Below, piece after piece: positions 12,373 through 32,050 of a stretch of DNA of 42,237 nt. Each line of letters starts with the position of its first letter. The stretch's first letter is position 1. Under the pieces are notes generated by a model. It was given only the letters and a program-made list of their open reading frames with translations. It did not search any database and was not told where the DNA came from. The stretch comes from an uncultured Methylococcales bacterium. Lineage in GTDB: Bacteria > Pseudomonadota > Gammaproteobacteria > Methylococcales > Methylomonadaceae. The stretch covers positions 1-42,237 of the forward strand of contig CAIUVX010000088.1 of the NCBI GenBank assembly GCA_903902705.1, written 5' to 3'. The position numbers and the translations under genes were made by a program.

Positions 12373-12546
12373 TAAGTAGTTAAGCATAACTATCAGGCAT
12401 AACTAGAAGCTTAACCGTTCGCCCTGAGCTGTGAGCTTGTCGAACAGTCGAAGGGTGGACGGTTAAGCCGTTCATGGTTCGACAGGCTCACCACGAACGG
12501 CTTAACCTTGTTCCAAATACCAGAAAACTTTTGTTCATCTACTTAT
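12373..12546 (+). repeat. Dispersed 160-base REP-containing repeat, copy A (empty site)
   Basis: Almost identical to 29535-29786 once the 92-base insertion in that copy is removed. It contains two REP-like inverted segments: GCTTAACCGTTCGCCCTGAG... pairing with ...GACGGTTAAGC, and GTTCATGGTTCGACAGGC with TCACCACGAACGGCTTAACC. This copy has about 15 extra bases in the first segment (an added CTGTGAGCTTGTCGAACAG-like piece). It lies upstream of the TA/R-M operon. Confidence 0.93.
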
Positions 12547-12704: not shown

Positions 12705-13479
12705 ATGGCAAAATTAGAAACAATTAAGAGCGCGTGTTGAACCCGACATAAAACTACGTTTTAGCGAACTTGCCAAGCAACAAGGACTGTCTGAATCAGA
12801 GCTATTAAGGTCGATTGTTTTAGACCTGACCAACCAAGGAACGCCCGCAGTTCAATCGATAAAAATCGATACAGAACACCTAGAGCTTGAAAGGCTAAGC
12901 ATTCGCTTGCCAAGGTTTTTAATGCAAGCTGCCAAACAAAATGCCAAAACCAAAAGTATGGCTATTAGCCGTTGGGTATCTGCGTTAGTACAAGCCAGTA
13001 ATCGAGAATTAACCGCCATTGGACGCAACATCAATCAAATTGCTAAGGTACTCAATGAGTCTTTTTATCGCGTTGAACAAGTAAAAATGGAGACGCTGAA
13101 TGAGTTAATACAGGTCATTAATACGAACCAAGCCGCCATCCGTGCGTTAATTCGTGTCAGTCAAAACCACTGGAAAGCCGACTTACAACACTGCCGTGAA
13201 AGTTTTGCAGAAAAGTTGCGCGAACAAAGTATCGATGCCGAAGCAACGCCCCGCAGTAGCCGTGGTGTCATAAAAAAAGTCGAATCCAGTGTGATTCGTC
13301 ATATTGAACAGGGCGATAAAACCCATCAACCGCGTGTGTCTAAAGTGAATGCGATGAAAATAAAACAAGCCGCCGAAGAGCTTGTTGCCGAAACACAAGG
13401 GCTATCCACTGAGCCAAAACCGTGGGATGCTGCCATTCAAGCCAAACAAAACAAAACAGTGTTAGAAAAGCATGGCTGA
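12705..13479 (+). pseudogene. mobC: MobC-like relaxosome protein, frameshifted
   Basis: ATG at 12705 gives MAKLETIKSA and then a stop; the family-like continuation ARVEPDIKLRFSELAKQQGL is in the next frame from 12730 and is open to 13479. Restoring two bases in the GCGCG tract at 12729-12734 would rejoin them, so a CG deletion is the likely lesion. The N-terminal part is an RHH DNA-binding region (KQQGLSESELLRSIVLDL) and the centre carries the MobC hallmark (ELTAIGRNINQIAKVLNES). MobC helps a relaxase nick oriT during plasmid mobilization. A shorter product from TTG 12907 would lack the RHH. Signs of a dead mobilizable element. Confidence 0.82.
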
Positions 13480-22674: not shown

Positions 22675-24567
22675 TTATGACACAGCACTAGCCGCTAGCC
22701 ACGTTTTAATCTGCTTTCGTAGCCATTGCCTTTGTTCAACAGATAGCCCCTTCGGATCAAACCGTAACTGGTAATGCAGTTGGCAAAGTTGTACTAATTC
22801 GGGTGAGGCTAAACGCTCAACCCAGTGTTGTAGGCTTTCGTTATCGAAGCGTGCTTGTTGGGTGTTGTGTAGGTGTTGTTCTAGTTGATAAAACTCAGAA
22901 TCTAATCCTGCATAAATTGGCTTTATTACGGTGGTTTTTGCGAAACGTCGAGTTAGACGTTTTCGGCTGAATAGCCGCGTGGTTAAATACAAAACCAGTA
23001 TTAACATCCCACTATATTTTAGCGTTAGACGTTGGCTTTCACTAACCGACCATTGCTGAAACATAAATACGCTGTTTGACCACGCATCGCTGAGAGTTTG
23101 CCATAGTCCATTAGCGTTATCGGCTTCTAGTGTTTGCCATTGTGCGGGGGTGGAGTCGATAGGTTGCCAGATACCGTCAAGGTAAGCGATTGCCCACGCA
23201 TGAGCATCACGGCGGCGCACGAGGTACAAATCTTGTTCGGGCAAGTATTCGCTAACTGAATACCCTGTGGCTAGGCGGGCTGGAATACCGTTTTGTCTGA
23301 GCAACAACACCGTCGCGGCGGCAAAATATTCACAATGCCCCGCTTTGCGTTTAAGCATAAAGTCTCTTAACGCTAGGTCGGGGTCGGTTTGCGTTCCTAA
23401 GTACAGGCTATAAAAAAAGTGTTGCTGAAAATAGTCTTTAATATGATCGGCAGCGATTTTAGGCGGCAGCCCTGCCAATTTTAGTTCACGGCTAACAGCT
23501 TGTAACCAGTCGCTATGTTGCGGAGGAATTTGCAAATCATAGCGGCTGGGTTTGCTGATTCGTTTGCCAGTGTAAGACACTTGATAGTTGGTGGTTTTGG
23601 ATGGAGTATCGATTTCTATCGTGCCAAGTTCGGTGCTTTGCAAAATGCTATCACCTAATCCTGTGAGTTTGACCACCCCATCAGGCAGAGCTAACACAGT
23701 GTGGCTAATGTTGTGTTGTAGAATCTCTAAGTGTTTTAACGCTGATTTTTCGCTGGGGGTTTGGAAATTTTCGACGCTAAATAGGCGTTTAGAGGCTATC
23801 CACGCTTGCCCTAAATAACGGTCATAACTGGCTTGATGTAGCAATATCTGCCCATCTGCTTTTAACCTAAATTCGATTTGACTGGATAATTTTAATTCGC
23901 CTATATCACCTATGGCGGTTTGATTTTTAAACGGATCGGCATTCCAATCGCTTAGCCATTGGATGGATTTTTGTTCGACCACATTGTGTAATTGGCGCAA
24001 GACTTTTTGTCCAGCATAACTGATTGCCACGGCTAATACCATGACAGGCAACCACCAATAAACACGGCTTTGTTGTGGGCGAATTGTCCAGAGTACCGCA
24101 ATAAAAAACAGCGTAGCGAGGATAAAATAATAAGTATCCTGCACATTTGCCGCCCCTGCGCTGAGAATAACAATAGCGGAATAGGGCAGTTGAACATCGA
24201 CATTTTTGTTAGTAGAGCGGTGCTTTCTACGCAGCGTATAAAATAGAGTGCTTAGTGGAATGTGCTGTTGTTGACTAAGTAACTGAGCCAATAACACGGG
24301 GGCGAGTAGTATGGGCAGACATTTAAGCAATACAAACATCGGCTGGTCGGTGGGCTGTATCAAGTACACGAACACCAACAATAGGACGATTAGTAAGGTT
24401 GATACATCGCCCCAGCGGTGTATTTGCTTGGGGTTGATATGCCAACGCCATGAGCTAGATTGAATAGCTGTAAAGGTAAACCATAAACCAGCAGCCAGCC
24501 ATTCGCTGTGTAATAACCAGCCCCATGAAGCTAGGCTGAAAGTTAGGAAGACGAGATTTTTGTTCAT
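22675..24567 (-). CDS. tgpA: TgpA-type membrane transglutaminase (DUF3488)
   Basis: 630 residues. Residues 1-195 hold six or so membrane helices (DUF3488), then a periplasmic transglutaminase-like domain with Cys (KAGHCEYFAAATVLLL, near 412), His (RRDAHAWAIAYLDG, near 455) and Asp (WQPIDSTPAQW, near 470), one more membrane helix (LILVLYLTTRLF) and a C-terminal cytosolic tail. The physiological substrate of this family is not settled. The start overlaps the DUF58 stop by 4 bases. With DUF58 and MoxR it forms a standard operon, here split by an insertion at 26-29.8 kb. Confidence 0.92.
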   Translation of the reverse strand: MNKNLVFLTFSLASWGWLLHSEWLAAGLWFTFTAIQSSSWRWHINPKQIHRWGDVSTLLIVLLLVFVYLIQPTDQPMFVLLKCLPILLAPVLLAQLLSQQQHIPLSTLFYTLRRKHRSTNKNVDVQLPYSAIVILSAGAANVQDTYYFILATLFFIAVLWTIRPQQSRVYWWLPVMVLAVAISYAGQKVLRQLHNVVEQKSIQWLSDWNADPFKNQTAIGDIGELKLSSQIEFRLKADGQILLHQASYDRYLGQAWIASKRLFSVENFQTPSEKSALKHLEILQHNISHTVLALPDGVVKLTGLGDSILQSTELGTIEIDTPSKTTNYQVSYTGKRISKPSRYDLQIPPQHSDWLQAVSRELKLAGLPPKIAADHIKDYFQQHFFYSLYLGTQTDPDLALRDFMLKRKAGHCEYFAAATVLLLRQNGIPARLATGYSVSEYLPEQDLYLVRRRDAHAWAIAYLDGIWQPIDSTPAQWQTLEADNANGLWQTLSDAWSNSVFMFQQWSVSESQRLTLKYSGMLILVLYLTTRLFSRKRLTRRFAKTTVIKPIYAGLDSEFYQLEQHLHNTQQARFDNESLQHWVERLASPELVQLCQLHYQLRFDPKGLSVEQRQWLRKQIKTWLAASAVS

Positions 24568-25895
24568 AACCCCGCCAACTGTTCTGCTAACTGCCGATAA
24601 TCCAATAAATAAAAATGCGGTGGTTTTTTGGGACAGTTAGCCAAAGTCAACGAACCATCGTGTAGTAAAAACACCGCCACAGGCAAACCATGCGCCATCA
24701 GTTGCTGAATAAAATTTTGCCGCGCTTCGTCCCAGTGCATCAACACGCACAGCAAACTGCTACATAACGCCAAACGTGCCAACACCGTTTGTTGTAATAA
24801 CTCGAATGACGTTTCAGAACTGGCTTGCACACTGGCGAGAATTTCTTGTAAATGGGTCACTTGGTCAACGCCACGCCCTGCGGTAAAACAATAACTTTGC
24901 AACCCGACAAATAATAAATCCAATAAGGCTTCATCATCTTGTTCGCTAGTCGCTAAGGAAGCAGCAACCGATACCGCTGCTTCAAATTGTTCACGATTAG
25001 CGATGCCAACAAAGGTATCTAGCACTAATGCCCGTCTAACAAAATATTCATCCTGATAATCTTTGACTATCAGCTTGCCGTGTTTAGCGTAGCTTTTCCA
25101 ATGAATGCTGTGTAACGGGTCGCCCTGTTGATAATCACGCAACGCCATAAATTCACTGGAATTGCCGACTGAATTGGCTAAAGACACGCCGCCTGATTGG
25201 TATTGTCGCCGTCCTGTTAAGTTCAGCGGTTTAATCGCATAGCGTTTCGGTAATATGATGCAACTTTGCGGTTCGTCCACGGTAATTAACCGCCGAAATA
25301 AACCCAATAAATCGGGTTTCGCAACAGAGCTAGGCGCGAAATGAATCACGCCGCGCCGCGTGGGAATAAAGCTATTAGTTACTTGCACTGGAGAAAGCCC
25401 CAAGCGCGGCACAGCAATTTCTTCAATCACCCCACCGCGTTGAATACTCAAATAACGCATCCACTGGCGAAAACTAATGCCACGTTTAAACCACGGTTCA
25501 TTATGCAGGGAATAAAATTGCTGTAATTGTGCAGGACTAGGTAGCGTCTCTGCTAACGGCTCAATTAACGCTAAACGGTCATAAATTCTCGGAGTTAAAT
25601 TAGTGAGGGTGACGCTGTAACGCAAGGGTTCACCGACAGTGCCATAACGTGGTAATTGGCGCGTCATTGACACCCGCAAACGATTAAACACGCCACCCAA
25701 CAACGAAAAAATCAACACCACCAGCAAAAACACAAACAACTGATAAGTGGTACTCTGGCGAGTATCAACACCAAACACCGCACTCGCAATCATAAAAGTG
25801 ATGAAAATATGCCCAGTTAAGGTGAAATGCCGCTTAATCCAATTATCAAAGCGGTAAACATTAAGGTATTGCCGAAGTACAAAACGTTGCCACAC
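24564..25895 (-). CDS. DUF58-domain protein of the MoxR/TgpA operon
   Basis: 443 residues from GTG 25895: two membrane helices (HIFITFMIASAVFGV and YQLFVFLLVVLIFSLLGGVF), a beta-rich region, and the DUF58 core (FMALRDYQQGDPLHSIHWKS). DUF58 has a vWA-like fold and works with MoxR ATPases in assembling exported complexes. The frame is open to ATG 26024, but the extra 43 residues start inside a REP element (MWFDKLTTN is REP sequence), whereas AGGGGG stands 8 bases before GTG 25895 and the protein then begins like its family (RFDNWIKRHFT). I prefer the short form; the long one may exist by accident. Confidence 0.88.
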   Translation of the reverse strand: MWQRFVLRQYLNVYRFDNWIKRHFTLTGHIFITFMIASAVFGVDTRQSTTYQLFVFLLVVLIFSLLGGVFNRLRVSMTRQLPRYGTVGEPLRYSVTLTNLTPRIYDRLALIEPLAETLPSPAQLQQFYSLHNEPWFKRGISFRQWMRYLSIQRGGVIEEIAVPRLGLSPVQVTNSFIPTRRGVIHFAPSSVAKPDLLGLFRRLITVDEPQSCIILPKRYAIKPLNLTGRRQYQSGGVSLANSVGNSSEFMALRDYQQGDPLHSIHWKSYAKHGKLIVKDYQDEYFVRRALVLDTFVGIANREQFEAAVSVAASLATSEQDDEALLDLLFVGLQSYCFTAGRGVDQVTHLQEILASVQASSETSFELLQQTVLARLALCSSLLCVLMHWDEARQNFIQQLMAHGLPVAVFLLHDGSLTLANCPKKPPHFYLLDYRQLAEQLAGL

Positions 25896-25995
25896 TATAT
25901 AATCCCCCTCACACAATTTAGTATTCTGGCGCAACAAGTCTTCCGTTAAGCTGTACAAATGGGCAATGATATAGCTAACGCACAATAAAATGATA

Positions 25996-26062
25996 ACGTT
26001 CGTGGTGAGCTTGTCGAACCACATTCACACTTCGACAGGCTCAGTGCGAACGGTTTTGTAAT
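25996..26062 (-). repeat. REP-like element, copy D
   Basis: On the minus strand it reads ATTACAAAACCGTTCGCACT, then TGTCGAAGTGTGAATGTGG and TTCGACAAGCTCACCACGAACG. Same element as 15846-15926 in the opposite orientation. It separates DUF58 from the R-M insertion. Confidence 0.85.
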
Positions 26063-26069
26063 CATTTTA

Positions 26070-26199
26070 TTAGCAGTTAGCTCTAGCATCCAATTCAGCG
26101 CGAATTTGCTCCCTATTGGAGTCCAAACTCATGAGTTTGGACTCCAAAAGTTCGGTTTTCAACTCATCAAATTCAGGCGTGGTGCAAATCAACGCCGAT
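26070..26199 (-). pseudogene. C-terminal scrap of a restriction-methyltransferase-like gene
   Basis: The minus strand is open from just after the big methylase gene and encodes KSALICTTPEFDELKTEL, then REQIRAELDARANC and a stop at 26070. The pattern REQIRAELDAR occurs near the end of many single-chain R-M methylases, so this may be a remnant of another such gene, cut by REP copy D. A perfect palindrome sits inside it in frame. It is short and the family assignment is a memory match. Confidence 0.4.
26116..26147. repeat. Perfect 32-base palindrome
   Basis: Both arms are fully complementary, centre CATG, arm starting TTGGAGTCCAAACT. It lies in the left flank of the R-M insertion. Confidence 0.95.
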
Positions 26200-29100
26200 T
26201 TAATCTAACTCCTTGCCCATACGATATTTAATATCATAGTTAATAATAAAATCCAGTTCTTCTTCGGTAAAACCATAATGCTGGGCAAGCACTTTGTCTA
26301 TTTCATCTATGATGGGTTTGGATTGCGAAGAAGTAAAAGACTGTATTTTAACCTCTCCTGTCTGTTTTTGGTTTCTAATTTGAAACCATGAGTTTTCTAC
26401 CAAGCTATTTTGAAGTCTACTTGATAAATCAATCAATTTTTCTTCATTTAGTATGGAAGCAGGAAATTTAAATTGTGTTAAATCAGTTGGGTTTAAATCT
26501 CGGCAATTACTTTTTGAATGGTAATTTAAAAAGAATAAGCTACTAGAAAATAATGAATGAAAAATATATTTATATATCTCCTTTTCAAAACCAATTGTTG
26601 TTTCTCTTGAACTTGATTGCTTAATGTCATTAATATAACATTCTGGTGGTATTAATGTAGTTGTAACATAATATCCTATTCCAGTGTTTTTATAATAAAT
26701 AACGTTACCTTTTCGTACATATTGTTCTACCTGCTCGCTTGTTGCATTTACCTTATTAAATATAGACAAAAACAGTTCATTGTTTATTTTTTCCCATATT
26801 TTACTACCGCTAATCTTGGTTTCATATAAACTTATATTGCTGAATAAAAAACTTCTTTCTTCAGTATTCCACTTGTAATATTTTGATGAAAACAATTTTC
26901 CAGATTTAATTTTATCTTTTTTGAAAATATAAATAGATAATCTTTGTTCTGCACCAGAAAATAACTTCGCTGGACGTATTGCGTAATTACTAACCCAAAT
27001 AATTCCATTTTCGACAAACCTTTTTCTGATTTCTTTCATTCTTTCTGTGTTGGAAATAGAAACTGGAACAATAAACCCCAAGTAACCATTATTATGTATA
27101 ATAAGTAATGATATTGCGGCTACCATTGAGTGTAAATTTCCACCAGTATTTACTTCAATGTTTCTAATTTTATATTCTTTTTATGCAACTTTTTTTTCCA
27201 CATAAGGCGGATTCCCAATAATCACATCAAAACCGCCCTTATCAATAATACGATAAAACTCAGTAAACCAATGAAACGGTTGATGTGATGCTTTCCACTG
27301 TGCTAATTTATCGTCATCAATCCCATAATCACGCGCTAAAAACCAATCTAACTGCTCTTTTATTTCAGCCAATCTATCAATAATTTCTTGTTTATCTTCG
27401 TGCAAACCAACAATATTATTTGCCAACTGATTCGCATTATAACGGCGTAAAACGCCTTGTAAATCTTGAATCATATCATCAATTAAAACCATTTCATCAC
27501 CGAAAAATATCTTCGCTTGTCCACTGACATCATATTCAACTGCGGTTCTAATCTGCTCATGTGTTGTGTAACCAATTAAAGTATTACCACAACGAATATT
27601 AAAATCAATATCAGGCAACGGCTCTAAACCCAAATTAGGTTTTTTATAATCAGCCTCAGACATTGCTGCTAATTTTAAAAACAAGCGCAATTTAGCAACT
27701 TCCACCGCTTCCTGCATAATATCCACGCCATACAGATTATTTAAAATAATCTTCTTATAAATCCAGTACGTTGGATTCGCGTGTTTATCAATATCCGCTA
27801 AAATATCACGAAACTTTTTAAATTTATTATCGGGTGCATTCTCAATAAACTCGCGCATTCGTTTAATACACGCTTCATACAACGGCTCTAAAATATTCAA
27901 CGCCGCAAACAAAAACGCCCCAGAGCCACAAGTCGGGTCAAGTACCGTTATATTTTCAATCGCATTATAAAACGCTTCAATAAAATCCGAACCTTCATAA
28001 TAATCCAGTGCGTCTTGAGAGAATTGGCGAATATTCAAATTAAACGTAATTAAGTCGTTAATATCCGTTATCTCACCATTAATTAGTTTAGCGTTTAATT
28101 CTTCATAACGTTGTCGCCGCGCAATGGTTTCACGCCATATTTCAGTAGGTAAAGCGAATTTTTCAGGTGTGGGCGTATTCCAATCGTTACGCCGCATTAA
28201 TAAATCAGGTGTAGAATTATCGATACCAATGGCAATATTTTCAGGAATATCTGTATATTCACAACCTTTTTTAACTGCATCATAAATATAACGGTCTGGA
28301 GAATCTTTCAATAACTGCCACAAACTACTATTCGTTTTAAACGCATTAGCACATTCAATTTTAACTTTATCGAATAAAAACGGAATAATAGTATTTTTGC
28401 CAATATATTCAGTAATATCTTCTTTGGTATAATACGCACCCATCGCTGCATGGTCATTAATATATTTCTCAAAAATATAACCAATCACATCGGGATTAAT
28501 TTCTTTACCCGTAGCATTGGCATTAGTATCTAAATGCCATTGATATTGGTCAAAAAAATCAAATAATTGCACAAAAGCATCATCCGCAATATCAATTGCA
28601 TCATTATTGTTTTCCAATTCATGAACATCAAACAAGCCACCGTTTAAATACGGCACATTACCAATTAACGCAATCAGCTCTTTATTATCTCTGTGTTCAG
28701 CACCCAAGCCTTCATGAAAGAACGCTAACAAAAAATGGCGATAAAACGAATAAAATTTATTTTCGCCTTGTATTTGGTAAACTTGATTTAATTTTGTGCG
28801 CAAATAATGCACATCGTTATTCAGAAATCCTTTTTTCTGAATAAAATAAATAAACATCAAGCGGTTAAGCATTAACGAGGCATACCATTCTTTATTAGCC
28901 TGACTATCCAAGCCATTAATATATTTTATAAAAACAGCGTGTTGTTTTTTGAAGTGGTCGTAAAACTTTTTAGTGGTTTTCTCGGTGTTAGCATTAAAAT
29001 TATTATTAACACGGTTAGTTACATCAACTAAATGAATATTATCTTCTTCGTCTAAGGTAAAAAATATACCCTGCAATCGAGACAATAATAACTTAGGCTC

Positions 29101-29496
29101 TTGATGGCTGTAGTATTCAGTTTCTTTGTATTGAATGGGTTTGTTTAATTCTTTAACTGAAATTTGCCAAATTTGTTTTTCAGTATTGAAATAAATAATT
29201 AAGTATTCGTGGTAAGTAATACCAATTTTATACGCTATCTTCTTACGTTCTGCTTGATTTGGAAATGTAGCCGATTGACAAGTGAAAATAATAAATCCCC
29301 GTTTTTCAGCAATTGCAGTTAATGAGTAACACTGTTCATTAACTACAATAGATTTTTTTAAGCTTGTATTATCCCATCCCAATGAATTAAACAAAGTTTG
29401 AAACTCAAACGCTTGAATATGTTTACGCAGTTTTTCCAGATTAAGTTTTGCCACAGTGTTAATATCCTTGTTAATTAAAAACTGGCGTTGGTGCAT
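26200..29496 (-). pseudogene. Single-chain Eco57I-like (type IIG) restriction-methylation protein with an in-frame stop
   Basis: One continuous frame of 1098 codons plus stop, interrupted only by TAA at 27181-27183. Residues 1-400 are the N-terminal nuclease/helical part; the SAM site DPTCGSGAFLFAAL is near 519 and the adenine-methylase motif GNPPYVE ends at 767, four codons before the stop. Beyond the stop the same frame continues KEYKIRNIEVNTGGNLHSM, VSISNTERM and the target-recognition part to NYDIKYRMGKELD, the usual end of this class. A truncated 771-residue product and a 308-residue C-terminal piece (ATG 27126) can be made, but an active one-chain enzyme cannot without readthrough. An A8 tract lies just before the stop. 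PglX of BREX is similar, but no other BREX gene is present. It is inserted between moxR and DUF58. Confidence 0.85.
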
Positions 29497-29534
29497 GAAT
29501 AAAGTTACAGTGGTTTCAATATAGGTTAGTTACC

Positions 29535-29786
29535 TAAGTAGTTAAGCATAAGTAACAGTGAATAAGTTTTTGGGTAATGAATGACTGCCAGTCCTTGAAG
29601 GACTGGCAGTCATATACCTGAAAACTTATACTCACTTACTTAACTATCAGGCATAACTAGAAGCTTAACCGTTCGCCCTGAGTTTGTCGAAGGGTGGACG
29701 GTTAAGCCGTTCATGGTTCGACAGGCTCACCACGAACGGCTTAACCTTGTTCCAAATACCAGAAAACTTTTGTTCATCTACTTATC
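29535..29786 (+). repeat. Dispersed 160-base REP-containing repeat, copy B (with insertion)
   Basis: Matches 12373-12546 from TAAGTAGTTAAGCATA to TTTTGTTCATCTACTTAT. It is interrupted by 92 bases after 29550 and lacks about 15 bases found in copy A. Same orientation as copy A. Confidence 0.93.
29549..29642. mobile_element. 90-base MITE-like hairpin with TA target duplication
   Basis: The empty site in copy A reads GCATAACTATCAGG. Copy B has GCA-TA, 90 extra bases, TA-ACTATCAGG. The inserted piece begins AGTAAC and ends CTTACT, its outer 27 bases pair imperfectly (about 21 of 27), and its core at 29581-29613 is a palindrome with two 16-base arms around one G. TA duplication and hairpin form are typical of IS630/Tc1-type MITEs. 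No transposase is encoded. Confidence 0.82.
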
Positions 29787-29788
29787 AG

Positions 29789-29812
29789 GAATACAAACCT
29801 AGGTTTGTATTC
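29789..29812. repeat. Perfect 24-base palindrome
   Basis: Centre CCTAGG, arm GAATACAAACCT; fully self-complementary. It lies 22 bases from the moxR stop. On the minus strand it could act as a hairpin after moxR, but no T-tract follows. Confidence 0.9.
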
Positions 29813-29833
29813 TCCAACCCGTTCAATGCGCTA

Positions 29834-30790
29834 TTAGCGCGGAATCGGCAGTTTATTGACTATATCCTGCACTAGCTGACTAGCGGTAATGCCCGAAAAT
29901 TTACTTTGCGCATTGAGATTTAAACGATGAGCAATGACAGGAATAGCGAGTTCTTTAATCACATCGGGGGTGACAAATTCCAAACCATCTATTAATGCCA
30001 AGGCTTGCGCGGCTTTCATTAACGTGAGTGAGGCTCTGGGACTCGCGCCCAATTGTACATCGGCAAGTTTGCGGGTTTCGGCAACAATGGCGACGATATA
30101 ATGTTTCAGTTCTTCACTAATGCGCACTTGCTTCACTTGATGCTGTAATTTGTGCAGTTCATCTAGTGAGATACACGCTTTTAAATCTGTTAATGGATGG
30201 TGATTTCCTTGTGCGTTGAGTATCGCCACTTCTTGCGCTTGACTGACATAGCCTAAGCTAAACTTCATTGCAAAACGGTCTAGCTGGGCTTCGGGTAATG
30301 GATAAGTGCCGTGAAATTCGACAGGATTTTGAGTGGCAATGACAAAAAATGGCGATGGTAACAGTCTGACTTGCCGCTCAATACTGACTTGATTTTCTGC
30401 CATTGCTTCCAACAATGCCGATTGAGTACGCGGTGAAGCACGGTTAATTTCATCGGCAAGCAAAATATGACAAAAAATCGCCCCTTGCTCAAAGCGAAAG
30501 CTTTGTTTCTGTGGGTCAAAAATTGAAATCCCCAAAATATCCGATGGCAATAAATCAGGAGTAAATTGAATGCGCTGAAATTCTGCTTCACACGACAATG
30601 CCAAGGCTTTCGCCAAGGTAGTTTTACCCGTGCCAGGAACATCTTCCAACAACACATGACCACCGCTACTAAACGCCGCTAACAACCATTGCAAGGTGCG
30701 GCGCTGTCCAAACAATACCAGCTCTAATTGCGTAGTGAGTTTAGCAAAAGTGGCGTGGGCTTGTGCGTAGTCTGTTAATAGTGTGGTCAT
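29834..30790 (-). CDS. MoxR-family AAA+ ATPase
   Basis: 318-residue MoxR chaperone-like ATPase: Walker A (LLEDVPGTGKTTLAKALA), Walker B with the DE pair (ILLADEINRASPRTQSALLE), sensor 1 (FFVIATQNPVEFHGTYPLPE), and a C-terminal lid with GASPRASLTLMKAAQA. It acts with DUF58 and TgpA proteins, whose genes now start 3.9 kb downstream because of the inserted R-M gene. It probably begins the original operon (moxR, DUF58, tgpA). Confidence 0.93.
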   Translation of the reverse strand: MTTLLTDYAQAHATFAKLTTQLELVLFGQRRTLQWLLAAFSSGGHVLLEDVPGTGKTTLAKALALSCEAEFQRIQFTPDLLPSDILGISIFDPQKQSFRFEQGAIFCHILLADEINRASPRTQSALLEAMAENQVSIERQVRLLPSPFFVIATQNPVEFHGTYPLPEAQLDRFAMKFSLGYVSQAQEVAILNAQGNHHPLTDLKACISLDELHKLQHQVKQVRISEELKHYIVAIVAETRKLADVQLGASPRASLTLMKAAQALALIDGLEFVTPDVIKELAIPVIAHRLNLNAQSKFSGITASQLVQDIVNKLPIPR

Positions 30791-31006: not shown

Positions 31007-32050
31007 TTAGATATACCATTCCTTAGGAATCTCATCTATCTTGAAGGGTGTGACTTGGATGGTACGTTCTGATCCATCTTGCTGCCTAATAGTAATATCA
31101 ACTTGTTCGGCATCACGTCCTTGACCATAACGGGCGGCAATTCGCGCCGCTAGATATAAATCTTCTGCGCTGAGTTCGCCATCAATTAATACTAAAGGGC
31201 CTGGGTGACTTGCACAATGTAAGCTGATAAATTGTTTTTTATAGCCTTGTAAAAATCGCCCTTCGCCTTCTTCACGCGCCACGATGAGTTTGAAATGTGG
31301 GGCAGGGCGGATATGTCTGCCGACTTTTAACAGCATCACGTCATCGAGTTCGTAGTCTTTGTGTCCGTGGGCTTGCCACAAATCGACTAATTTGGCAGAA
31401 TAACTTTTGTCGGTCAGAAAACAACAACCGCCCGCAGGTTGGGCATAGTCATCAAACTCCCATTTTTCAGCCAGTGCCATTTGTGGCTTGCGTGAACGTC
31501 CTGTGATGTCATGCAGTTTTTCTCTGTCTACCCAGCCTTCACGTTCAGGCAAGGTTTCAGGGAGATTTTTTGCACATAAAGGACGCAGCAATAAATCATC
31601 CGCACCTGATTGTTTAGAAATAATGGGCATGGTAGCTTTGCGTTGTGACATAGGACGCTGACCAATCACTTCTCCCGTGATGATAAAGTCAAAATCGTTT
31701 TCGACTATCCATTGTTTGGCTTTGTTGACCATGAAAATTTTGCAATCTAAACACGGATTCAAATGCTGACCATAGCCGTGTTTTGGATTAATCAGCACAT
31801 TTTTATATTCTTCGATAACATCGACAATATGCAGTTTGATGCCCAGTTGTTCAGCGACCCACAGGGAGTTATTGCGTTTAACTTTGGCTTTGTCTTTGGC
31901 GCGTATCGCGTGAGTATGACCTTCAACACAAAACCCTGTGAAAAAATTAATGCCTTCAACGTGGATGCCTTGTTCGAGGATGGTTTTCGCCGCTAACATG
32001 GAATCTAATCCACCTGAAATAAGGGCGACTGCTTTTCGTTGCTTGCTCAT
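31007..32050 (-). CDS. PP-loop tRNA-thiolation-like protein with C-terminal DUF814-like domain
   Basis: 347 residues. The N-terminal ATP-pyrophosphatase domain has the PP-loop SGGLDSMLAA (13-22) and the MnmA/ThiI-like Cys motif NPCLDCKIFM; a second Cys pair is in PAGGCCFLTD. The C-terminal ~90 residues (SLHCASHPGPLVLIDGELSA, LYLAARIAARYGQG) look like the NFACT-R/DUF814 RNA-binding domain. Proteins of this layout are usually named tRNA-thiouridylase-like; the modified base is unknown. This is not canonical MnmA: it is about 20 residues shorter and ends differently. It is a single gene with 215 bases free of genes on the moxR side. Confidence 0.75.
   Translation of the reverse strand: MSKQRKAVALISGGLDSMLAAKTILEQGIHVEGINFFTGFCVEGHTHAIRAKDKAKVKRNNSLWVAEQLGIKLHIVDVIEEYKNVLINPKHGYGQHLNPCLDCKIFMVNKAKQWIVENDFDFIITGEVIGQRPMSQRKATMPIISKQSGADDLLLRPLCAKNLPETLPEREGWVDREKLHDITGRSRKPQMALAEKWEFDDYAQPAGGCCFLTDKSYSAKLVDLWQAHGHKDYELDDVMLLKVGRHIRPAPHFKLIVAREEGEGRFLQGYKKQFISLHCASHPGPLVLIDGELSAEDLYLAARIAARYGQGRDAEQVDITIRQQDGSERTIQVTPFKIDEIPKEWYI

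What the first reader, a model, noticed from the sequence alone, without database searches (positions are those of the whole stretch)
26070..29833. R-M gene inserted in the conserved moxR-DUF58-tgpA operon
MoxR, DUF58 and TgpA genes are normally contiguous. Here a 3.3-kb restriction-methylase gene and its repeat-rich flanks sit between moxR and DUF58, all on the same strand, so transcription may still read through.
Basis: partly seen in the sequence, partly recalled or inferred. Interest (0 to 1): 0.5.

Follow-up and report, generated by a model that had tools for sequence, protein, structure and literature searches.

The report
R-M cassettes swapped inside moxR operon
In a methane-eating bacterium, foreign DNA-methyltransferase genes have been inserted, replaced and are decaying between two genes of a conserved operon that otherwise stays intact; it is a clear new example of a known kind of gene-swapping site rather than a new system.

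Summary
Confirmed, with corrections. On the minus strand moxR (29834-30790) and DUF58 are separated by 3,938 nt holding an AT-rich (31.8% GC against about 45%) Eco57I-type methyltransferase gene. DUF58 really starts at GTG 25895, not 26024. The 3.3-kb frame is broken by an in-frame TAA (27181-27183). Of the 18 nearest DUF58 loci elsewhere, 12 have moxR upstream: 10 are contiguous, including the congener G004. The sister species G006 is interrupted at the same junction by an unrelated Type II R-M pair plus R-M debris; a more distant relative has a UPF0175 gene there. The window also keeps a C-terminal scrap of a second R-M gene abutting the first. A 39-nt DUF58 leader shared by the window and G006, absent from G004, suggests that the interruption predates their split and the cargo changed later. 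moxR, DUF58 and tgpA remain under purifying selection. The flanking repeats belong to REP-like families spread through the genome. Best reading: a recurrent R-M insertion/replacement site, resembling the 'minimal mobile elements' of Neisseria, now holding a partnerless, nonsense-interrupted methyltransferase. How cassettes move, and whether transcription reads through, is inferred only.

The parts
29834..30790 (-). moxR (AAA_3 ATPase), upstream gene of the operon
   Evidence: Pfam PF07726 E 5.7e-62; 98% identical in G006, 95% in G004
29641..29767 (-). repeat unit 'B' (paired REP-like inverted repeats) between moxR and the methyltransferase gene
   Evidence: 57 matches in the genome to this 127-nt query, 23 of them (itself included) at E <= 1e-20; the first look scored 40 of 136 candidates, so the count is a lower bound
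26200..29496 (-). Eco57I-type DNA methyltransferase / R-M gene frame with one internal stop; a start at a GTG about 15 codons inside is possible by comparison with relatives
   Evidence: 77% identical N-terminal part and 63-64% over full length in intact relatives G240 and G243; GC 31.8%
27181..27183 (-). in-frame TAA directly after NPPYVEKKVA; intact relatives have a sense codon in this column
26085..26197 (-). C-terminal coding remnant of a different Eco57I-type gene, starting within 3 nt of the stop of the resident gene, carrying a small palindrome and running into unit A
   Evidence: tblastn E 5e-6 and blastn 41 nt at 92.7% to the C-terminal part of the R-M gene on contig C123; coordinates
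25966..26089 (-). repeat unit 'A' (paired REP-like cores inside outer inverted repeats) between the remnant and DUF58; includes a sigma-70-like match at 26017-25990
   Evidence: 100% over 117-119 nt to copies on contigs C196, C124 and C5; 51 matches, first look scored 40 of 179 candidates; promoter-like scan
25896..25934 (-). 39-nt leader with a G-rich ribosome-binding-site-like stretch (by eye) upstream of DUF58, shared with G006, absent from G004
   Evidence: local alignment score 22; 0 of 5,000 mononucleotide shuffles reach it, shuffle maximum 16; G004 scores 5
24564..25895 (-). DUF58 gene, true start GTG at 25895
   Evidence: PF01882 E 5e-7 for the longer ORF
22675..24567 (-). tgpA-like transglutaminase gene, overlapping DUF58 by 4 nt
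   Evidence: PF01841 E 1.1e-16; same 4-nt overlap in G006

Best explanation
The junction between moxR and DUF58 is a place where foreign R-M (defence) genes have repeatedly settled and been replaced in this methanotroph lineage, without damage to the operon genes. Shown by sequence: the contiguous operon is the common state in relatives that have both genes together; two sister species carry unrelated R-M cargo at this same junction; both show debris of further R-M genes; and the DUF58 side has a leader that both sisters share. Inferred: one ancestral insertion opened the junction before the sisters split and gave DUF58 its own ribosome-binding site; later cassettes replaced one another by recombination, using the conserved flanking genes and perhaps the flanking REP-like repeats as homology. 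The present tenant is the methyltransferase half of a family that often sits with an HKD-SNF2 helicase; it has no such partner in the window and has a nonsense codon, so it is probably a dying or dead gene. The operon is probably still expressed, through co-directional transcription across the insert and/or a promoter near DUF58.
For: Contiguous operon in 10 of the 12 nearest loci with moxR upstream, 1-nt gap in G004. G006: 5,292-nt insert at the same junction with a Type II REase (PDLC03513, E 1.3e-141), a D12 adenine methyltransferase (PF02086), a 499-aa N-terminal fragment matching positions 5-535 of a 1,646-position IIG profile, and two partial YgjP-like genes. A more distant relative, L055, has a 91-aa UPF0175 gene in the same gap. 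Apart from the leader, the two R-M inserts share only REP-like DNA and one 32-nt match at E 0.005. R-M remnant in the window. Shared 39-nt leader. GC 31.8% for the window gene and 26.7-27.5% for the G006 pair, against 44.8-45.3% for the operon genes. The resident gene family is found at E <= 1e-30 in 7 of 237 family genomes, its own included, and not in sisters G006 and G004. dN/dS G000 against G006: moxR 0.043, DUF58 0.060, tgpA 0.153. In the syntenic stretch the six other gene junctions compared between G000 and G006 have gaps of -4 to 185 nt, none with an insert.
Against: Only three of 8 congeners have the operon at all, so the site rests on two independent-looking R-M cargos plus one UPF0175 case. 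The G006 IIG fragment is not AT-rich (49.5% GC). The exchange mechanism is not seen: no clear recombination edge, no integrase family among the scanned insert ORFs. Y1 transposase frames exist in the genome, but none of the 7 stretches scanned around them holds a REP core, which speaks against RAYT-driven movement of these repeats. The 39-nt leader could be shared for another reason, such as selection on the DUF58 5' region. In 6 of the 18 nearest loci no moxR was found upstream of DUF58 in the fetched DNA. No transcript data. Draft assemblies; the TAA could in principle be an assembly or sequencing error. The search scored only 4 of 13 candidates in G006, so a weak copy there could be missed.
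Confidence: 0.72

Rival explanations
1. A single chance insertion of one R-M gene that did no harm, with no special property of the site; the G006 insert at the same junction is coincidence.
For: Only two R-M inserts known; 10 of the 12 nearest loci with moxR upstream are uninterrupted; the genome has Eco57I-type matches over the cut-off at 16 distinct places, so R-M genes sit in many spots.
Against: Unrelated R-M cargo at exactly the same junction in the sister species, debris of a second R-M gene in the window and of others in G006, shared leader; none of the six other junctions compared is interrupted.
Confidence: 0.17
2. REP-bounded cassette exchange: homologous copies of the A and B repeat units act as landing pads, so that R-M genes are shuffled between REP-flanked sites across the genome.
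For: REP cores within 500 nt on both sides in 3 of 15 Eco57I-type genes (window included) against 2 of 156 control frames, Fisher p 0.005, or 2 of 14 and p 0.034 without the window. Three R-M genes (C88, C123, C45) have a B unit 126-206 nt upstream in the same orientation.
Against: Of 21 other B copies looked at (20 fetched plus the window's second one, of 22 found at E <= 1e-20), only 2 (C123, C45) adjoin an R-M gene known in that way; the other neighbours were judged by eye, not family-scanned, and several contigs end at the unit. Either-side association alone is not significant (6 of 15 against 30 of 156, p 0.09). The test was made after seeing the case. REPs favour intergenic DNA, whose length may differ between the groups. 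In the G006 insert a REP was seen only on the moxR side.
Confidence: 0.2
3. Assembly artefact: the R-M segment was joined in at two near-identical repeats.
For: Both edges of the R-M segment lie in repeat units that are 99-100% identical to copies elsewhere, and several contigs end in the B unit.
Against: Two pairs of contig ends overlap by exactly 141 nt, longer than the 124- and 127-nt units, and the window's B copy differs by one base from the C123, C124 and C196 copies. DNA that is neither moxR nor DUF58 lies between moxR and B (66 nt, partly a palindrome) and between A and DUF58 (70 nt), so the operon is interrupted whatever lies between; the sister genome is interrupted there too.
Confidence: 0.05
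4. The resident gene is still a working, perhaps switchable, R-M or methyltransferase gene (read-through or phase variation at the stop).
For: Only one internal stop and an otherwise open frame in both halves.
Against: No tandem repeat that would obviously allow slippage was seen by eye at the stop, though there are short A runs (no repeat finder was run for this purpose); the stop separates the catalytic NPPY motif from the presumed target-recognition half; no HKD-SNF2 partner gene in the window.
Confidence: 0.1

Closest known systems
Minimal mobile elements (MMEs) of Neisseria, e.g. the pheS/pheT R-M locus (PMC3898611 and PMC3082526, passages seen)
   Same: Region between two conserved genes holding different whole-gene cassettes in different strains; R-M systems are frequent cargo.
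   Different: Here seen between species of an uncultured-methanotroph genus, inside an operon, with REP-like repeats at the edges; incorporation by homologous recombination not shown.
Type IIG restriction-methyltransferases (PADLOC REase_MTase_IIG, PDLC03628)
   Same: The resident gene matches the profile nearly end to end in two pieces.
   Different: Nonsense-interrupted; no conserved (D/E)XK signature seen by eye in the N-terminal alignment; relatives are often linked to a helicase gene, which a self-contained IIG enzyme would not need (recalled).
HKD+Snf2 helicase with methyltransferase pair (helicase best PADLOC profile PDLC01075, C3a139), as on plasmids pPRO1 and pSYSX
   Same: The methyltransferase is homologous; in 7 of 12 methyltransferase loci scanned, a helicase homologue lies in the fetched stretch.
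   Different: No helicase homologue in the 42-kb window; one is on contig C196 of the same genome.
REP/BIME repeats (PMC2817692 abstract; PMC3733652 passages)
   Same: Short palindromic cores in inverted pairs, more than 100 copies, intergenic and sometimes inside genes.
   Different: No REP core found in the stretches scanned around Y1 transposase matches of this genome.

Membership tests
Minimal mobile element | Region bounded by two conserved genes | tested here: met
   moxR and DUF58 conserved in sequence and order in G004, G006, G022 and others
Minimal mobile element | Different whole-gene cassettes, or none, in different strains | tested here: met
   window: Eco57I-type gene; G006: Type II R-M pair; G004: empty; compared between species, not strains
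Minimal mobile element | No mobility gene of its own in the cassette (recalled as part of the concept) | tested here: met
   ORFs of the two inserts scanned against Pfam gave R-M and YgjP families (and REase-associated DUFs) only, the C-terminal half of the window gene none; small ORFs not scanned
Minimal mobile element | Incorporation solely by homologous recombination in the flanks | tested here: inconclusive
   divergence profiles of moxR and DUF58 show no clear tract; moxR dS 0.32 against 0.16-0.21 for the other genes compared is only suggestive
Type IIG restriction-methyltransferase | N6-adenine methyltransferase core (DPxCGSGAF and NPPY motifs, recalled) | tested here: met
   PF07669 E 1.3e-17; PDLC03628 E 2.3e-241; DPTCGSGAF and NPPY in the translation
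Type IIG restriction-methyltransferase | Nuclease domain in the same polypeptide | tested here: inconclusive
   no conserved (D/E)XK by eye in a 5-row N-terminal alignment; low-confidence model (mean pLDDT 44.8) with only weak matches to many folds, one row named restriction endonuclease domain at Z 5.7
Type IIG restriction-methyltransferase | One uninterrupted reading frame | tested here: not met
   TAA at 27181-27183
HKD-SNF2 helicase plus methyltransferase pair | Helicase gene beside the methyltransferase gene | tested here: not met
   no tblastn hit in the window; present in 7 of 12 methyltransferase loci scanned, some of them short stretches
Integrase-borne genomic island | Integrase gene in the insert | tested here: not met
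   no integrase family in the scanned insert ORFs; small ORFs not scanned
Integrase-borne genomic island | tRNA target and flanking direct repeats | tested here: inconclusive
   no tRNA or tmRNA gene in the window; a 33-nt direct repeat at 79% identity flanks the methyltransferase gene, but it is REP DNA

The most novel reading that the evidence does not exclude
REP-like repeats in this methanotroph work as exchange pads: R-M genes flanked by copies of the same repeat units move between loci of one genome and between species, and the moxR-DUF58 junction is one such dock, kept open because DUF58 gained its own translation start there.
Probability: 0.18. Interest if true: 0.55.

Novelty: new member of a known kind. 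Interest (0 to 1): 0.36.

Why it matters
It shows defence-gene turnover at one fixed, operon-internal junction, with empty site, two unrelated R-M cargos, R-M debris and a retained leader all visible in three congeners, so the order of events can be read. It gives a tractable locus for asking how R-M genes move without integrases, and whether REP-like repeats take part. A practical point: a longest-ORF annotation would start DUF58 inside a repeat, and reading the 3.3-kb frame as one R-M gene would overlook its internal stop.

Tried and rejected
RAYT transposition of the repeats: 8 Y1_Tnp matches in the genome; the 7 loci scanned around them (about 1.5 kb a side or less; the eighth match overlaps one of these loci) hold no REP core; not supported. 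I took a 215-aa ORF beside the methyltransferase in G240 for a REP transposase by eye; it had no Pfam hit at E <= 0.001, so I make no use of it. Solved relatives of the N-terminal 771 aa: none at E <= 0.001. Structure model of the 771 aa with two viral relatives: mean pLDDT 44.8, and the VIA-align second look gave a best Z of 7.4 with no single fold standing out; no conclusion drawn. Recombination tract in moxR: not clear. Splitting of the window's methyltransferase from the C196 helicase by the B unit: dropped, since contig-end overlaps suggest that C196 and C166 connect to C123 and C124 in an unknown pairing, and C123 carries another methyltransferase of the family. Literature: moxR/DUF58/transglutaminase/operon gave 5 papers, judged from listing and abstract starts, none about an insertion; restriction-modification with Methylococcales and methanotroph gave none, though a listing elsewhere names a paper on native R-M systems of Methylococcus capsulatus, PMC13390346, not read; REP with restriction-modification gave 3, none on REP-flanked R-M genes by title and abstract start. 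I therefore say only that I found no report of this locus in the searches, all of them in an open-licence library.

Dropped before counts: of 21 PF07669 places (16 distinct genes over the cut-off), the R-M/REP count used 15 stretches, of which one (C87) gave no frame, plus the window, so n = 15; the second places of the C123 and C166 genes and the three weaker places on C51 (13898) and C105 (two) were left out. The control stretches were partly chosen from contigs known to hold REPs, which raises the control rate. Several R-M stretches end at contig ends. One B copy (on C94) of the 22 others was not looked at.
Full report
What is there. The window is contig C88 of a 3.97-Mb draft genome in 210 contigs. 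Its nearest relatives in the named-genome scan bear methanotroph names such as Methylococcales, Methylobacter and Methylococcaceae. On the minus strand run moxR (29834-30790), an Eco57I-type methyltransferase frame (26200-29496), DUF58 and a transglutaminase-core gene, tgpA-like (22675-24567). The frame 26200-29496 has one in-frame TAA at 27181-27183, just after the NPPY motif; intact relatives (G240, G243) have a sense codon in that column. The two halves match one PADLOC profile (PDLC03628, REase_MTase_IIG) at positions 2-762 and 793-1098 of 1100.

DUF58 start. The longest ORF starts at 26024, but its first 30 or so residues are encoded by a repeat that hits many places in the genome and genus. 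Close relatives align from about GTG 25895 on. In G004 the ATG of DUF58 follows the moxR stop after one base. The true interruption is therefore 25896-29833, 3,938 nt; in G006 it is 5,292 nt.

Relatives. DUF58 with the operon occurs in 3 of 8 genomes of the genus: the window's genome, G006 (98% DUF58 identity) and G004 (92%). A scan of named genomes gave 48 DUF58 loci. I counted the 18 nearest (L042-L058 and L089, about 49% identity or more). Twelve have moxR upstream on the same strand: 10 contiguous (L043-L048, L052, L054, L056, L057), L055 with about 510 nt, and L042 (the G006 genome) with the 5.3-kb insert. Six have no moxR in the fetched DNA upstream (L049, L050, L051, L053, L058, L089), in two of them with under 4 kb of upstream DNA. 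Among the 30 more distant loci (L059-L088), 27 have moxR within about 210 nt by the alignment-based measure, two have none in the fetched DNA (L059, L077), and L073 has a 3.2-kb gap holding a 1,066-aa frame that I did not classify.

Cargo. The G006 insert at the same junction holds a 424-aa Type II REase (PDLC03513, E 1.3e-141), a 280-aa D12 adenine methyltransferase, a 499-aa N-terminal fragment of a IIG enzyme (profile positions 5-535 of 1646) and two partial YgjP-like genes. Apart from the leader described below, the only similarities to the window's insert are REP-like stretches and one 32-nt match with E 0.005. In L055 a 91-aa UPF0175 protein lies in the gap. In the window, 26085-26197 encodes a piece of the C-terminus of another Eco57I-type gene, whose full relative is on contig C123 (tblastn E 5e-6; blastn 41 nt at 92.7%); it begins within 3 nt of the stop of the resident gene and runs into repeat unit A. 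So the window site has seen at least two R-M genes, and the G006 site at least two as well.

History. A 39-nt leader before DUF58 is shared by the window and G006 (score 22; 0 of 5,000 mononucleotide shuffles reach it) and is not in G004 (score 5). The simplest reading is one opening of the junction before the two split, then replacement of cargo. GC is 31.8% in the window's gene and 26.7-27.5% in the G006 pair, against 44.8-45.3% in the operon; the G006 IIG fragment is 49.5%. The resident gene family occurs in 7 of 237 genomes of the bacterial family at E <= 1e-30, its own included, and not in G006 or G004 (few candidates scored per genome).

State of the operon. dN/dS between the window and G006 is 0.043 (moxR), 0.060 (DUF58) and 0.153 (tgpA); four neighbouring genes give 0.055-0.093, and DUF58 and tgpA against the uninterrupted G022 give 0.055 and 0.154, at saturated dS. 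The genes are thus kept. Between moxR and the methyltransferase, and between it and DUF58, no minus-strand terminator-like site was found; the three found lie inside genes. A promoter-like match (10 of 12) lies in unit A at 26017-25990, but the region as a whole has 31 promoter-like sites against 21.1 (sd 4.8) expected, so this is weak. The leader has a G-rich, ribosome-binding-like stretch some 8 nt before the GTG, by eye.

Repeats. The core TTCGACARNCTCA occurs 232 times in the genome (control 2). Unit B (29641-29767) and unit A (25966-26089) are members of two repeat types. Both-side REP flanking within 500 nt: 3 of 15 Eco57I-type genes against 2 of 156 control frames (p 0.005; 2 of 14 without the window, p 0.034); either side: 6 of 15 against 30 of 156 (p 0.09). 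Of 21 other B copies looked at, two adjoin an R-M gene downstream in the window's orientation (C123, C45); the other neighbours, judged by eye from their first residues, look mostly ordinary, and some copies lie at contig ends with one side unseen. The association is worth noting, not enough to name a mechanism. No REP core lies in the 7 stretches scanned around the Y1 transposase matches.

What the resident gene is. It is the methyltransferase of a family whose members often stand with an HKD-SNF2 helicase: a helicase homologue was found in 7 of the 12 methyltransferase loci scanned (L106, L107, L108, L271, L273, L274, L097; not in L272, L098, L099, L160 or the window; some stretches are short or start at a contig end) (annotation of pPRO1 and pSYSX). 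The window has none; contig C196 of the same genome has one. The two intact relatives G240 and G243 are identical at 731 of 751 residues before NPPYVE but at only 130 of 335 after it, which fits exchange of the recognition half. Whether the N-terminal domain is a nuclease is open.

Assembly. Contigs C123 and C124 share exactly 141 nt at their starts, as do C166 and the reversed end of C196, which suggests a k of 141. Units A and B are shorter, and the window's B copy differs by one base from the C123, C124 and C196 copies. Further DNA separates each unit from moxR (66 nt) and DUF58 (70 nt). I judge the interruption real.

Comparison with what is known. Minimal mobile elements are defined as regions between two conserved genes with different whole-gene cassettes in different strains, incorporated solely by homologous recombination, and they often harbour R-M systems (PMC3898611, passages); the pheS/pheT locus with its Type II R-M system varies between meningococcal strains (PMC3082526, passages; that it is counted among the MMEs is recalled). 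The present locus meets the layout features; the route of incorporation is untested. REPs inside genes and between genes are known (PMC3733652, passages; PMC2817692, abstract). So this is a new member of a known kind, in a setting (operon-internal, methanotroph, REP-edged) for which I found no report.

Noticed in passing
window 25896-26024: The longest DUF58 ORF starts inside a REP-like repeat, whose translation (MWFDKLTTN...) recurs at many places of the genome and genus.
   Followed up: yes
L160 (contig C123) 333-3923: A second Eco57I-type gene, 1,196 aa and open, contains in-frame REP copies at two places of its coding sequence.
   Followed up: partly
G000: PF07669 matches over the cut-off at 16 distinct places, which strikes me as a large stock of Eco57I-type genes for 4 Mb (impression, not a test).
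   Followed up: partly
L106 6711-9989 and L107 7324-10581: G240 and G243 carry the methyltransferase in the same surroundings (beside c-type cytochrome-like genes, by eye); 731 of 751 residues agree before NPPYVE but only 130 of 335 after it, as if the target-recognition half had been exchanged.
   Followed up: partly
window 26113-26150, 29581-29613, 29789-29812: Three small near-perfect palindromes; all three have copies in other fetched stretches of the genome.
   Followed up: no
window 12387-12528 and 12907-13479: Another B unit copy lies near an ORF with a MobC match (PF05713, E 4.5e-6), a possible remnant of a mobilisable element.
   Followed up: no
L253 (contig C196 end) and L160 (contig C123 start): An HKD-SNF2 helicase gene and a small antitoxin-like ORF (by eye) stand before a B unit at the end of contig C196; C123 starts with a B unit and a methyltransferase gene, so the two may form one helicase-methyltransferase system.
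   Followed up: partly
L055 9652-9927: UPF0175 gene in the moxR-DUF58 gap of another Methylococcaceae genome, a third kind of cargo at this junction.
   Followed up: partly
L037 16673-18256: Upstream of moxR the G006 genome has a methane/phenol hydroxylase-family gene (PF02332) where the window has another gene (31007-32050), so synteny also breaks upstream of moxR.
   Followed up: no
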